From contig QBWD01000026.1 in the NCBI GenBank assembly GCA_003283685.1, forward strand, positions 1 to 15,481: DNA of 15,481 bases, in the 5' to 3' direction. Below, piece after piece: positions 923-5,148 of this stretch. Position 1 is the stretch's first letter. Each line of letters begins with the position of its first letter. The notes below the pieces were generated by a model. The model was not told the origin of the DNA, did no database searches, and saw only the letters and a list, made by a program, of their open reading frames with translations. The position numbers and the translations under genes are program-made. Source of the DNA: Prochlorococcus sp. AG-315-D17. Its GTDB lineage: Bacteria; Cyanobacteriota; Cyanobacteriia; PCC-6307; Cyanobiaceae.

Positions 923-1033
923 TCTTCCAAGCTTGCCTCTACCATAGAAAAAGTTTATTTATACTTTTGGTGTAAAGATTGACCGATTAAGCCAACAAAT
1001 TAAAAGAGATTTTAGCAGTCAAACAAAAACGAA

Positions 1034-1203
1034 AAAAGTTAGAGCAAAGTTAGAATACAAGCCTATCGAGAACAGTGAGAGTCCTTGGTGTCACTAGTTT
1101 CCTAGACGTTGAATAAAAACTCCATAACGTCCAGTTATACCAATTGATTACGAGCAAAAATCGCGGTTAGACGTAAGTTAGAATAGATAGAACAAAGTTA
1201 AAA
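1034..1203. repeat. ychF-end module, copy 1 (complete, attP-like)
   Basis: This copy aligns without gaps to 1844-1993 at an offset of 810 bp: about 22 differences in 150 positions by hand count. Contents in order are two direct repeats (1035-1044 AAAGTTAGAG, 1046-1055 AAAGTTAGAA), a left inverted arm (1085-1097), the 30-bp ychF-end core (1102-1131), a right inverted arm (1131-1143, matching 10 of 13), then two more direct repeats (1174-1183 TAAGTTAGAA, 1194-1203 AAAGTTAAAA). The part left of and including the core is also related to 3990-4086 at the real ychF end; the part right of it is not. I infer a recombination junction between two cassettes. Confidence 0.85.
1102..1131 (-). pseudogene. 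Detached ychF 3' end, copy 1 (ten codons)
   Basis: On the minus strand this reads DVMEFLFNV-stop, the same last nine residues and TAG stop as the intact ychF at 4057. It has two base differences from the real gene end (GAC for GAT, GTC for GTA), both synonymous. Further upstream on the minus strand the ychF frame is lost at once (TAA two codons before the Asp), so this is only the extreme gene end and no longer a truncated gene. Best read as the core of a recombination site. Confidence 0.85.
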
Positions 1204-1338
1204 GAAATCAAGCCTATTTAAATTCTGAAAAGAGTTGATAAACCTTATTCACTTTTAGGGACAAATTTTGTTATTAATGAAGTATCTATAAATTCATACG
1301 CAAAAGAAAGAAAGAATAATTCCTCTAGAAATAACTTT

Positions 1339-1363
1339 AGCCTGACCCAAGCAGGGCAAGGCT
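1339..1363. other. Short imperfect hairpin
   Basis: AGCCT (1339-1343) pairs with AGGCT (1359-1363); inside, CCC (1346-1348) pairs with GGG (1354-1356) around loop AAGCA, with a 2x2 internal loop. No T-tract follows on either strand, so a Rho-independent terminator is not supported. It may be part of the untranslated leader of the gene at 1525 or chance. Confidence 0.3.
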
Positions 1364-1450
1364 TCTAAGCATAAAACGTATCAACCGTTACATTTTTGTT
1401 AAATTCTACCTCTCTGTGCTCGCGGAAAACGGTATCAACAGCTACACTTC

Positions 1451-1527
1451 CTTTACGTTCGTTCCTCTTTCGGAATGCATGTTTGGGTAACAGGGAACGG
1501 GGTTACCTTTACTGAGGAAACGTCATG
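1451..1527 (+). promoter_or_regulatory. Structured 5' leader with alternative pairing over the ribosome binding site
   Basis: Immediately before the 93-residue gene two hairpins can form: CGTTCC (1460-1465) with GGAATG (1472-1477, one G-U) around TCTTTC, and GGTAAC (1486-1491) with GTTACC (1502-1507). A competing helix uses the same bases: ACGTT (1455-1459) with AACGT (1519-1523) and TCCTC (1463-1467) with GAGGA (1514-1518), the Shine-Dalgarno. The two states are mutually exclusive, as in translation-controlling riboswitches. A CGTTC followed by a short hairpin and CGGAA, upstream of a very small gene, recalls the cyanobacterial glnA/Downstream-peptide (glutamine) RNA class. That resemblance is from memory and weak. 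Confidence 0.45.
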
Positions 1528-2012: not shown

Positions 2013-2126
2013 TTCAGGCAATGTATTAACTCAGTTAAAATGGATAGAATTTTCTAGCTTTCTATATAAAATAGATAAGTTATAAGGTTTTTAAGCCTTG
2101 TGAAGAGTCAAATACAAACAGCGTAA

Positions 2127-3871
2127 ATCAAAAAACTCCTTAAAAAAAAAGAAGGTTTTTCTTTGATAGAACTTGTTGTGGTTGTTTCTGTTCTTGCAGT
2201 CTTGTCTGCAATTGCGGTTCCAACGTTTAGTTGTTTTCAGAGAAGAACAAAAGCAACTGCTGCTTTAGCAGCTATGAAACAAATTCAAAGTGAGTGTGAA
2301 ATTAATAAAGCAGATAAATCTATTTTGCTAGGTAATTTCACTTCAAGTAATTTAAATTCTTATCAAATCCAATCTGATGGATCAAATAGTTGTAACGGAG
2401 CATCAGGGACTGGACTAATCAGTGCGATGCCTAATGAAACCGATCAATTGCCCACTTTTATTTTGGCTACTAATAGTAATGAATTAACGTATAGCTTTAA
2501 GGGGCAAACAGGATCAAATTTTTCAGATTGTTTGAGCTTAATTTGCATAAGTGCTGGCTCTGATTCCACACCAGAACCCATACCAGAACCTGATCCCGCC
2601 CTCGATATTGGTGATATTGTGAGCATTGGGCCTAGTGGTGGAAATAGTCAACTTAGTTGCAATGGAAAATTTCTGACAATAAGGGATAGAGAAGATGATC
2701 AGGTATATCGCCAGGACGTGGAAACTGGTGAAAGAGTTATGATAACGTCAACAAAAGAAGGGGTACCCTCAACAGGAGACTCACAAACGGTTACGGATAT
2801 CTCTTGTAATGGTAGATATGCATTGGTAACTCTTGATGAATATGGTTCAGTTGATTTTGATGGAATACCAGGTTCTGAATCAGCTCAAGTTTGTGAGGAA
2901 GACGATTGTGATGAATTTGGATATGTGAATGATCGAGGAGCTCTTTATAGGAAAGATCTTGAGACAGGCGAAGTTATTAGAGTCGATACGCTTAGCAATG
3001 GAGAGAAAAAGCGGAATAAATGGGGCATTCATGAAGCAGTACTTTCCTCCGATGGAAGATTTACTGTGTTTGAGACTCCAGATGTTCAGCTTACAGGGTT
3101 AGAGGAAGCTGAATGGCAATCTGACGATTGGTCTAGAACTTTGGCTTATAGAAAAGACATGGACAGCGGCGAACTTGCTGTTGTTGTTACAAAACCTGAT
3201 GGCTCCCCTGGTGAGGGATGGACCCAATCAGGTGGTTATGGTAATGGAGTTAGTGATGATGGATCTAAAGTAACTTTTATCTACAAAGGCGATGATCTAG
3301 TACCAGGTGTAAGCGGTACTAATCTTTATGTTAAAGATTTTAATACCAATACTGTTTCATTGGTTTCATCAGATAGTGGAGGGAATAGATTAGATGATTT
3401 TGGCAACTATGGGAGTGGATCAAGAATTTCTCCAGATGGTTCAAAAGTTATCTTTACAAGCAATGGTTCAAACGGAACAGCTCAGGTAATGATGAAAGAT
3501 CTTGCTACTGATCAATTAAGTGTTATTAGTATGAACGCCAACGGGGATGTAGCCAATGCCTTTGCAGGAGGAGGTGAATTTAACTTTTCAGGTAACAGAA
3601 ATATTTAACATATGGTTCTTCCGCATCGAATATTGTTGAAAATGACACTAATGGGAGGATGGATCTTTTTATCTATGATATTTCCTCAGGCGAAACAAAA
3701 AGATTATTAGATGATAAAGCAAATTCATTTAATGATCATTTGCGTAATCCTCAAATGAGTGAAGATGGTAAGTACATTTCTTTTACTTCTCGCACTACAG
3801 GGATCACGGAAGATGGTGGCAGTAGTGGAAACAGTGAAGCATATATAGTAAAGAGTCCTTTCTTTGAATGA
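2127..3871 (+). pseudogene. Type IV pilin-like protein with seven-bladed propeller tail; no start codon, frameshifted
   Basis: The frame from 2127 reads KKLLKKKEGFSLIELVVVV, a prepilin cleavage site, but has no ATG, GTG or TTG between the TAA at 2124 and the cleavage site; the TTG at 2163 lies inside the mature helix. Residues 1-128 (from 2163) match the pilin at base 2 at about 80%. A Pro-rich linker (TPEPIPEPDPALD) follows, then PD40/TolB-like blades marked by NGKFLTI, NGRYALV, DGRFTVF, DGSKVTF and DGSKVIF. The frame stops at 3606-3608. Restoring one A in the run at 3599-3601 joins it to the frame ending at 3871 and yields NRKYLTYGSSASN and DGKYISF, blades six and seven. So a ~570-residue surface protein is broken at both ends of expression: silent cassette, decaying gene or, for the shift, a sequencing error. 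A nine-A tract lies at 2142-2150. Confidence 0.8.
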
Positions 3872-3989
3872 TTAAAAAGATTTAAACCACATAACCCATC
3901 AAGCAATTAATTTTGATTACTAAAACTATTGATTAAATGAACCGCTTCTCATCTTTCGACCTAACAATTTATGCCTTTTCGAATCTACT

Positions 3990-4086
3990 AAAAGTTAGAA
4001 CAAAGTTAGAATAGAGGTTATTCTAATCTTTGAGAACCCTTATTATCACTTGAATACTATACGTTGAATAAAAACTCCATAACATC
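3990..4086. repeat. ychF-end module, copy 3 (half copy, attL-like, fused to ychF)
   Basis: Two AAAGTTAGAA repeats (3991-4000, 4002-4011, 11-bp period) are followed, at almost the same spacing as in copies 1 and 2, by the core 4057-4086. Here the core is the true 3' end of ychF. The left inverted arm is degenerate (4040-4053, 10 of 14 matching copy 2). The right arm and right direct repeats are absent, replaced by the ychF body. This is the layout expected of a hybrid junction between a host gene and the first inserted cassette. Confidence 0.8.
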
Positions 4087-5148
4087 CCCCTCATTGACGA
4101 CATATTCTTTCCCTTCACTCCTTAGCCAACCTTTGTTTCTTGCTTCAGTTAAAGAACCTGCTTTCAGAAGTTTTTCGTATGAAATTGTTTGTGCACGAAT
4201 AAAACCCTTTTCGAAATCTGAATGTATCACCCCAGCAGCTTGAGGAGCTGTCATTCCCTCAAGAATAGTCCAGGCTTTTGTTTCTTTTTCTCCGGTAGTG
4301 AAATATGTACTTAAACCCAGCAATCGATATGTTGCTTTTATAAGACTAATTAAACCTCCTTCTTTTACACCTAATCCATTTAAATAATCATCCCTTTCTT
4401 CGTCTCCTAATTCAATTAGCTCTGCTTCAACCTGTGCTGAAATTCTCACACATTCAGAACCTTCCTTTTCTGCAAGATTATTTACTTCTTCTGAAAAGTT
4501 GTTCCCCTTCGAAAGTTCATCTTCTCCAAGATTAGTTGCATAAATAATTGGTTTTTGAGTTAATAATCCTAATGGTTTAATTATTTTCTTTTCCTCCTCT
4601 GTTAACAAGACATTTCTAGCTGCGTTTTCATTTTCCAAAGCCATACTTAATTTTTCTAAAATATCATCTTCTATTTTTGCTTCCTTATTAGTATTTAACT
4701 GTTTTTTTAATCTAGCTCTTCTCTTTTCTATTTGACTTAAATCAGACAAGGCTAATTCTAAATTTATTATCTCAATATCTCTTATTGGTTCAACTGATCC
4801 AGATACATGAATTACATCATCATCGTTAAAACACCGAATAACATGAACTATTGCATCAACTTCTCTAATATTAGCCAAAAACTTATTCCCGAGCCCTTCA
4901 CCTTTACTAGCCCCTTTAACAAGTCCAGCAATATCTACAAATTCTATTCTAGTTGGAATAATTTGCTTGCTTTCACTAAGTTCTGCAAGCAAATCTAAGC
5001 GTTGATCAGGTACTGAAACACAACCAACATTGGGCTCGATAGTACAAAAAGGGAAATTTGCTGCTTGTGCTTGAGCGTTAGCTACAAGAGCATTAAATAA
5101 AGTTGACTTACCAACATTTGGGAGTCCAACAATTCCGGCCTTTAGCAT
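4057..5148 (-). CDS. ychF: YchF/Obg-related translation-associated ATPase
   Basis: 363 residues, the usual YchF length. The G1 P-loop GLPNVGKS (8-15) is followed by VDIAG (71-75) with the long GASKGEGLG loop. The G4 position is NLGE (206-209), the N-x-x-E form that gives YchF its preference for ATP over GTP. A helical insert (~130-180) precedes the C-terminal TGS domain, ending GKEYVVNEGDVMEFLFNV. YchF is a cytosolic, ribosome-associated P-loop NTPase of the Obg group (family knowledge). ATG start at 5148. Its final ten codons are the sequence repeated in the accessory region, so the conserved gene end is preserved while adjoining DNA varies. It is divergent from the adaptor gene at 5316 across 167 bp, and the pilin-like genes converge on it. 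Confidence 0.97.
   Translation of the reverse strand: MLKAGIVGLPNVGKSTLFNALVANAQAQAANFPFCTIEPNVGCVSVPDQRLDLLAELSESKQIIPTRIEFVDIAGLVKGASKGEGLGNKFLANIREVDAIVHVIRCFNDDDVIHVSGSVEPIRDIEIINLELALSDLSQIEKRRARLKKQLNTNKEAKIEDDILEKLSMALENENAARNVLLTEEEKKIIKPLGLLTQKPIIYATNLGEDELSKGNNFSEEVNNLAEKEGSECVRISAQVEAELIELGDEERDDYLNGLGVKEGGLISLIKATYRLLGLSTYFTTGEKETKAWTILEGMTAPQAAGVIHSDFEKGFIRAQTISYEKLLKAGSLTEARNKGWLRSEGKEYVVNEGDVMEFLFNV

What the first reader, a model, noticed from the sequence alone, without database searches (positions are those of the whole stretch)
1031..4090. A cassette array anchored on the 3' end of ychF
The last ten codons of ychF (DVMEFLFNV-stop) occur three times: in the gene (4057-4086) and at 1912-1941 and 1102-1131, with only synonymous differences. 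Between the copies lie a 2145-bp unit (propeller-pilin) and an 810-bp unit (small repeat protein with its own leader); beyond the third is a lectin-pilin. All three reading frames point the same way, toward ychF. Copies 1 and 2 share ~150 bp on both sides of the core, while the ychF copy shares only the left side. This is the pattern of successive site-specific insertions at a protected gene end: one gene-cassette hybrid junction and complete junctions between cassettes. Mobile elements commonly use tRNA or housekeeping-gene 3' ends this way. I know of no described cassette system using ychF, though I cannot search.
Basis: partly seen in the sequence, partly recalled or inferred. Interest (0 to 1): 0.9.

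Follow-up and report, generated by a model that had tools for sequence, protein, structure and literature searches.

The report
Gene-cassette array anchored on ychF
Prochlorococcus and some related marine cyanobacteria stack small cargo-gene cassettes, one behind another, at the end of the housekeeping gene ychF, each joint looking like an integrase attachment site that gives ychF its stop codon back.

Summary
The repeat is real and is an integrase-type attachment-site array. A ~158-column module (left arm, ychF-end core, right arm) separates cassettes downstream of ychF; 31 of 41 genomes of the nearest genus held have matches. The 29 ychF ends in the array regions carry core plus right arm only (attL-like); left arm plus core abuts the chromosomal flank at the far end in some genomes (attR-like). 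The same cassettes recur at different ranks; ychF-to-flank distance varies from 0.1 to 16 kb; empty sites exist. In another clade one element lies between attL and attR, and empty alleles place the crossover in a 15-bp core; the element supplies ychF's stop codon. The arrays hold no recognised recombinase, but four genomes of other genera carry a tyrosine integrase (one broken) directly inside the ychF attL. The same integrase family also uses EVE-domain and ErpA-like genes, with homologous cargo. Kind: tandem accretion of integrase-less elements, as at Dehalococcoides ssrA, but at a protein gene with small cassettes. Recombination itself is untested.

The parts
4057..5148 (-). ychF, anchor gene; its 3' end is the target (attB) core
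   Evidence: ORF 363 aa; tblastn to the other ychF genes
3992..4087 (-). attL-like hybrid junction: ychF-end core plus right arm (profile columns 62-158)
   Evidence: 72 bits, E 8e-21
2002..3991 (.). first cassette: pilin-like N terminus fused to a PD40-type propeller
   Evidence: between modules; PF07676 E 1e-4; 49% identical to a pilin-propeller in an EVE-type array of G118
2163..3608 (+). pilin-propeller ORF (481 aa), probably interrupted; its propeller seems to go on at 3659-3871
1846..2001 (-). complete attP-like module between cassettes (columns 3-158); inverted repeat 1895-1909 / 1939-1953 around the core, GTTAGA-type direct repeats 11 bp apart in both arms (1848, 1859; 1976, 1987)
   Evidence: 144 bits, E 6e-43; the inverted repeat pairs in the predicted fold, though the fold is not far from shuffles (z -1.8 and -1.1); positions read
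1187..1845 (.). second cassette: Glutamine-II riboswitch plus 93-aa peptide gene
   Evidence: the peptide is 60% identical to one in a cassette of G005
1453..1509 (+). Glutamine-II riboswitch (RF01704)
   Evidence: 34.3 bits against a cut-off of 33
1525..1806 (+). 93-aa downstream peptide ORF
1036..1186 (-). complete attP-like module (columns 8-158)
   Evidence: 138 bits, E 4e-41
   Evidence: PF07963 E 4e-6; 48% identical to the pilin cassette of G008

Best explanation
The ychF 3' end is the chromosomal target (attB) of a family of tyrosine-integrase elements. Each cassette carries one complete attP-like site: left arm with direct repeats, one half of an inverted repeat, a core copying the last codons of ychF, the other half of the repeat, right arm. 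Recombination between the core in ychF and the core of a circular cassette puts the cassette directly behind ychF and gives ychF a new last base and stop codon from the incoming cassette. Repeated insertion pushes older cassettes away from ychF, where their sites decay. In the window's group (LLI-type Prochlorococcus; clade label recalled) no recombinase was recognised in the stacked cassettes; I infer that they move, or once moved, with an integrase supplied in trans by related integrase-bearing elements, which sit at ychF, an EVE-domain gene or an ErpA-like gene in other genomes. Shown by sequence: site anatomy, attL/attP/attR distribution, empty and occupied alleles, cassettes at different ranks, polarity of decay, integrases adjacent to ychF sites. 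Inferred: circular intermediate, direction of insertion, helper in trans, route between cells.
For: Module matches in 31 of 41 genus genomes. At the 29 ychF ends of the array regions (28 loci and the window) the match starts at column 61-63, so core and right arm only; further modules follow in most. 128 of 128 modules of at least 25 bits share one orientation within their locus. A 2.5-kb cassette (94-100% identity) is in 13 loci at ranks 1, 3 and 4 (two of the 13 on contigs without ychF), a 3.58-kb one (97-100%) in 6 at ranks 1-3. The flank that follows ychF in empty G010 is found in 10 of 10 other intervals that reach the SDR gene, 0.1 to 16.0 kb from ychF; left arm plus core abuts it in G006, G007, G008, G021, and in decayed form in G003. 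Another clade: L028 attL and attR share GTTCTTATTTAATGT, and the attR flank is about 95% identical to empty L004, L009, L010. 28 of 29 ychF-joined copies keep EFLFNV-stop against 49 of 97 others. Module scores fall with rank in 12 of 12 loci with at least 3 modules (mean rho -0.63, 0 of 5000 shuffles as low). Tyrosine integrases sit directly inside the ychF attL in G174, G320, G119 and, broken, G355 (PF00589 in G174, G119, G355).
Against: No recombination was observed, circular forms could not be sought in reads, and no viral contig was confirmed to encode a relative of the ychF integrase or of the commonest cassette's metallophosphatase. Relatives of the ychF integrase are rare in the genus (12 of 41 genomes have any match, most fragmentary, none at ychF), so the helper is inferred. 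Arm identity follows the cassette clearly only on one side (inner left 0.70-0.91 against outer right 0.49-0.68); on the other side inner right is 0.60-0.84 but outer left 0.62-0.82. In G004, G005, G019 and G030 no clean attR is seen at the distal junction. Much variable DNA lies beyond the flank (flank to SDR 1.4-24.9 kb; 24.9 in G003, 17.8 in G007) and is not accounted for by modules; four intervals hold a further module just past the flank. The decay test uses a profile seeded from a copy near ychF, which may favour near ones.
Confidence: 0.87

Rival explanations
1. An integron: the modules are attC-like recombination sites of an IntI integrase, ychF being a fortuitous neighbour.
For: Array of one-orientation modules between cassettes mostly of 1-3 ORFs; the inverted repeat folds into a hairpin, with z -3.1 to -4.1 in three of six folds; GTCTAAC resembles an attC core box (recalled motif).
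Against: No integron integrase over the curated cut-off in 41 genomes; 4 have weak matches, and all 14 control genomes also give weak matches only. The ychF end itself is duplicated at the joints and the crossover maps to it. At the EVE anchor the same layout has different arm letters. None of the three folds of window sequence reaches z -2.
Confidence: 0.03
2. Old tandem duplication of the ychF end followed by homologous recombination between the repeats; no site-specific recombinase.
For: Homologous exchange between 150-bp repeats probably also occurs; arms look mosaic.
Against: Half-sites at the two ends, empty alleles, a single-element insertion in another clade with a 15-bp core, tyrosine integrases next to ychF attL sites, and the same layout at two unrelated genes.
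Confidence: 0.05
3. A fossil array: elements integrated by their own integrases and each later lost the integrase; nothing moves now (classic CIME accretion).
For: Integrase remnants near ychF in G300 (by eye) and G355; decay with distance; few intact integrases in the genus.
Against: Near-identical cassettes (up to 100%) at different ranks in different genomes and little-decayed modules next to ychF; none of the 30 proteins scanned (27 from other loci, 3 from the window) is a recombinase, and short cassettes (median 2.06 kb) leave little room for one.
Confidence: 0.2

Closest known systems
Dehalococcoides ssrA genomic islands (PMC3146451, passages read)
   Same: Tandem islands behind a single-copy housekeeping gene, bounded by direct repeats of its 3' end; some islands without integration module, proposed as cis-mobilizable elements moved by accretion.
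   Different: Target is tmRNA and the integrase a CcrB homologue; here a protein-coding gene, PF00589 integrases in relatives, ~158-column sites with two arms, cassettes of 0.3-6.2 kb.
CIMEs and ICE/IME tandem accretion (PMC5704250, passages read)
   Same: Elements lacking integration genes but keeping attL and attR, stacked by insertion of newcomers at the target gene end.
   Different: Those are described as decayed ICEs or IMEs; here cassettes are small and recur nearly unchanged at different ranks; among the 30 proteins scanned the only one of secretion type is a T2SSE ATPase.
Additive flexible genomic islands, e.g. Methylophilaceae tRNA-Lys island (PMC10872708, passages read)
   Same: Streamlined aquatic bacteria; variable island marked by recurring copies of a gene's last 20 bp.
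   Different: tRNA target; no attP-like arms or half-site structure in the passages read.
Tycheposons of Prochlorococcus (original paper recalled, not held; second-hand in passages of PMC10872708 and PMC11389934)
   Same: Prochlorococcus elements with tyrosine recombinases.
   Different: Described at 7 tRNA genes; ours lie at ychF, EVE and ErpA-like genes, and no tRNA was found in 20 integrase regions.
Integrons
   Same: Works like: cassette array with one-orientation sites and polarity.
   Different: No IntI over the cut-off; sites are attP-like; target is a gene end.

Membership tests
Site-specific (tyrosine integrase) integrative element with attL/attR | Direct repeat of the target gene end at both borders; empty allele | tested here: met
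   L028 against L004, L009, L010; G010 and the distal junctions of G006, G007, G008, G021; not clean in G004, G005, G019, G030
Site-specific (tyrosine integrase) integrative element with attL/attR | Cognate integrase gene next to attL | tested here: inconclusive
   Present in G174, G320, G119, broken in G355; none found inside the window group's arrays
CIME / tandem accretion | Elements without integrase, bounded by functional att sites, stacked at one target | tested here: inconclusive
   Anatomy met; function of the sites not tested
CIME / tandem accretion | Cis-mobilization shown | not testable with these tools
   needs an experiment
Additive flexible genomic island | Variable island extended by repeated insertion at one site | tested here: met
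   0.1-16.0 kb between ychF and the flank in 10 genomes; shared and singleton cassettes
Integron | IntI integrase | tested here: not met
   0 of 41 genomes over cut-off
Integron | attC-type site with its crossover in the attC core box | tested here: not met
   the shared repeat, hence the crossover, lies in the ychF-derived core
Tycheposon | Insertion at a tRNA gene | tested here: not met
   targets are protein genes; 0 tRNAs in 20 integrase regions, none in the window
Tycheposon | Integrase homologous to tycheposon recombinases | not tested
   original paper and sequences not held

The most novel reading that the evidence does not exclude
Picocyanobacteria possess a widespread, integron-like cassette platform without a resident integrase: cassettes mostly of 1-3 genes, each with a complete attP-like site, shuttle between protein-gene anchors (ychF, EVE, ErpA) and genomes whenever a helper element brings the integrase. 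Pilins with adhesive-looking extensions, TPR proteins and a riboswitch-controlled peptide ride on it, and the target gene's stop codon is renewed at each insertion.
Probability: 0.5. Interest if true: 0.88.

Novelty: new variant of a known kind. Interest (0 to 1): 0.77.

Why it matters
Prochlorococcus is highly streamlined, yet its pangenome is huge (own knowledge); how small single genes come and go has been hard to pin down. Here is a defined entrance: one gene end, a crossover narrowed to 15 bp in one case, a queue of cassettes whose site decay appears to record the order of arrival, and candidate helper integrases. Cassette turnover in wild populations becomes countable from reads spanning ychF, and the integrase plus ychF attB might serve as an integration tool for an organism with poor genetics. 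Cargo shared between the ychF and EVE anchors suggests that cassettes, not whole islands, are units of exchange.

Tried and rejected
Own genome: none is held. Viral collections: the arm pattern and the core pattern gave 0; the arm pattern gave two contigs (L261, L262) whose matches score only 7 bits against the profile, judged chance. Integrase and metallophosphatase cassette in viral contigs: none confirmed. Module against phage records: no match. A conserved tyrosine recombinase with a frame of about 390 aa, found in most of the 41 genomes: considered as the array's enzyme, not pursued, because it is also in empty-site G010 and in genomes where no module was found. Integron reading: rejected (crossover evidence). 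L313's far module was first taken for an attR; it lies on the opposite strand and is not counted. PADLOC scan of 10 proteins: three matches to a TPR protein and one weak match to a phosphorylase-like protein. Solved-structure search with the integrase gave one chance-looking match. Fold of six module strands: mixed. Papers: no report of integration at ychF in Prochlorococcus came up in the held library (searches, listings only; comparison searches); the tycheposon paper itself did not come up. Pneumococcal prophages have an attB between ychF and its neighbour (PMC8637289, passages), a different arrangement. Dropped before counts: L001 as a duplicate of L147 (kept instead of L147, which also misfiled one internal copy; recounted); modules under 25 bits for cassette boundaries and orientation; three gaps under 100 bp between modules were not counted as cassettes; 8 of 137 alignment rows lacking core letters (three further rows belong to L001); L148 had no module. 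Counts are per locus; fragmented genomes (G018, G027, G034, G037) give more than one locus.
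Full report
Observation. A profile of 158 columns grown from one window copy scores the window's copies at 138, 144 and 72 bits, the ychF copy matching columns 62-158 only. The window array runs off its left end, and no genome is held for the window. The closest named relative found by YchF is Prochlorococcus sp. AG-402-K04 (89% identity), whose ychF is followed by different DNA with further core copies. 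Clade names used here (LLI-type, high-light) are recalled, not from a call.

Distribution. Of the 41 genomes of that relative's genus held here, 31 have module matches at E <= 0.001; ychF itself is found in 29 of 41, many assemblies being incomplete. I fetched 38 regions; 37 hold modules. At the 29 ychF ends in them (28 loci and the window) the match begins at column 61-63: core and right arm only, the left side being ychF itself. In most, further modules, many complete, follow downstream, mostly 0.3-6 kb apart (three gaps are under 100 bp). Modules of at least 25 bits number 128 with the window's three, all in one orientation within their locus, which is ychF's where ychF is present; nine are left-only. 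87 cassettes of 284-6239 bp (median 2061) lie between them; 82 of 87 hold one to three ORFs of at least 70 aa. Cargo orientation is mixed (106 with, 59 against ychF).

Movement. One 2.5-kb cassette occurs in 13 loci at 94-100% identity, at ranks 1, 3 and 4 where ychF is on the contig; a 3.58-kb cassette in 6 loci at 97-100% and ranks 1, 2 and 3; 40 of 87 cassettes have no partner at the threshold used. In the ten genomes with ychF and the next conserved gene (an SDR gene, found in 22 of 41) on one contig, they lie 2.0-32.2 kb apart.

Empty sites and half-sites. G010 has ychF followed directly by a terminator-like flank without any arm; G026 keeps only a decayed right arm. That flank is found in 10 of 10 other intervals that reach the SDR gene, at 0.1, 2.7, 2.7, 6.8, 10.0, 10.7, 12.1, 14.1, 14.5 and 16.0 kb from ychF. 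In G006, G007, G008 and G021 a left arm plus core abuts it, and a decayed form does in G003; in G004, G005, G019 and G030 no clean attR is seen. Beyond the flank another 1.4-24.9 kb separates it from the SDR gene (24.9 in G003, 17.8 in G007), so not all variation here is explained by modules; in G003, G006, G007 and G021 one more module lies just past the flank. In another clade, L028 (Prochlorococcus AG-402-K22) has a right arm after ychF and, about 7.4 kb on, a left arm plus core; the DNA beyond is about 95% identical over 422-527 bp to what follows ychF in L004, L010 and L009. Both joints share GTTCTTATTTAATGT, 15 bp. The GTTTAG end of ychF in L010 corresponds to GTGTAA at L028's attL, so the incoming DNA supplies the last base and stop.

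Selection on the core. 28 of 29 ychF-joined copies keep EFLFNV-stop, against 49 of 97 other copies with enough core letters. This fits a need to keep the coding core only where ychF is joined.

Age gradient. Module score falls with rank from ychF in 12 of 12 loci with at least three modules beyond ychF (mean Spearman -0.63; 0 of 5000 within-locus shuffles as low; pooled rho -0.49, n = 82). The simplest reading is insertion at ychF with older sites decaying outward; the profile's seed may exaggerate this.

Site anatomy. Modules show direct repeats of TCTAAC type about 11 bp apart (at least two exact copies of G/T-TCTAAC in 38 of 53 left and 42 of 73 right arms with enough letters) and an inverted repeat TTGGTATGACTGGAC / GTCCAGTCATACCAA around the core. 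Of six module strands folded, three stand well below shuffles (z -3.1 to -4.1); the three window strands do not (z -1.8, -1.1, 0.5). Arms outside and core inside is the layout of a phage-type attP (established knowledge). Arm identity follows the cassette clearly on its ychF-distal side, less clearly on the other. The exact arm motif TCTAACTTNNGTCTAACC occurs in the 41 genomes only in modules; two further matches outside arrays have one mismatch.

Enzyme. No listed match to the integrase domain in the 41 genomes lies between ychF and the array end. In a search of 400 family genomes with a module, 53 matched, counting bare ychF-end cores. In G174 a 459-aa tyrosine recombinase starts just inside the ychF attL; its C terminus reads YSLRHSR..MGH..THY, near the HxxR..H..Y pattern of such enzymes with the first H as Y (pattern recalled). 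A search with it matched 50 of 400 family genomes. Of 30 loci fetched for these, ychF, attL and integrase stand together in G174, G320, G355 (two stops inside) and G119. G300 has a 78-aa ORF resembling the N terminus by eye. In G119 the integrase (528 aa) is followed by a gene matching T7-type RNA polymerase (PF00940, E 2e-36). In the genus, 12 of 41 genomes have any relative of the G119 integrase, with full-length matches in G031 and G006, none at ychF.

Other anchors. In G055 five copies of a site with the same layout but different arm letters have a core equal to the 5' coding end of an EVE-domain gene (PF01878), beside a 517-aa protein that matches the integrase by tblastn but gives no Pfam match. 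In G031, one of the 41 genomes, a right arm follows an ErpA-like gene and precedes a 529-aa integrase. In a tree of 36 integrases the 13 labelled EVE-site ones fall together with two unlabelled rows, and the G031 ErpA-site and G119 ychF-site enzymes are sisters; the three ychF-site ones do not form one group. Labels came from a motif search and 19 rows remain unlabelled. Cargo is shared: metallophosphatase 78% and ATPase-like protein 65% identical between the G055 array and the ychF 2.5-kb cassette; the window's pilin-propeller is 49% identical to one in an array of G118 whose integrase is labelled EVE-type.

Cargo in the window. A pilin (N_methyl; 48% identical to a pilin cassette of G008), a Glutamine-II riboswitch with a 93-aa peptide (peptide 60% identical to a cassette peptide of G005; no such riboswitch over the cut-off in 17 further array regions searched), and a probably broken pilin-propeller. 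I scanned 30 proteins with Pfam, 3 from the window and 27 from other loci, chosen from the 165 cassette ORFs in 58 clusters: TPR, metallophosphoesterase, ATP-grasp/Alpha-E/transglutaminase, FG-GAP/DUF4214, carbamoyltransferase, phosphorylase, nuclease, glycosyltransferase, secretion-type ATPase, pilin and others; none is a recombinase.

Comparison. By anatomy this is tandem accretion of integrase-less integrative elements, known from Dehalococcoides ssrA (PMC3146451, passages) and CIMEs (PMC5704250, passages) and, as additive islands with repeated tRNA ends, from Methylophilaceae (PMC10872708, passages). It works rather like an integron but is not one. It differs from tycheposons as described second-hand (7 tRNA targets). 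In the held library no paper linking ychF to such arrays in Prochlorococcus came up.

Verdict. A real, recurring cassette array whose joints are integrase-type sites; the mobile-element reading is well supported by sequence, the helper in trans and present-day activity are inference.

Noticed in passing
L315 (G055) 716-9524 and 16491-16967: A second cassette array with the same layout whose core is the 5' coding end of an EVE-domain gene; five site copies, an integrase-like gene at its end, cargo homologous to the ychF cassettes.
   Followed up: partly
L314 (G031) 8834-10896: An ErpA-like gene end followed by a right arm with TCTAAC repeats and a 529-aa integrase: a third protein-gene anchor.
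   Followed up: partly
L313 (G119) 7058-9514: A gene matching T7-type RNA polymerase beside the ychF-site integrase; hints at a phage-derived helper.
   Followed up: no
G003, G006, G007, G021 intervals, about 100 bp past the chromosomal flank: A further module copy beyond the conserved flank in four intervals, and up to 24.9 kb of further variable DNA before the SDR gene; not explained by simple insertion at ychF.
   Followed up: partly
L269 (G084) 3014-3163: A complete ychF-type module about 3 kb upstream of an EVE-like gene (named by eye), with no ychF found in the region.
   Followed up: no
L200 (G027) 14584-14679: A left-arm-plus-core remnant away from ychF, near tRNA-Thr genes and an integrase fragment.
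   Followed up: no
L199 (G038) 12450-12479: Next to a 451-aa recombinase ORF and a stretch resembling a tRNA 3' end (by eye; ARAGORN found no tRNA there), a match to module columns 37-66: the inverted-repeat half may be shared with tRNA-site elements.
   Followed up: no
window 1453-1806: A Glutamine-II riboswitch and its downstream peptide travel as a cassette.
   Followed up: partly
L197:3225-3794 and the ~750-bp cassette family: A 189-aa protein with a weak, below-cut-off NikA-like match belongs to one of the commonest cassettes (6 loci, with relatives in tails); a candidate DNA-binding helper.
   Followed up: no
window 2163-3871: The pilin-propeller gene appears interrupted by a stop near 3608, its propeller continuing in another ORF.
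   Followed up: no
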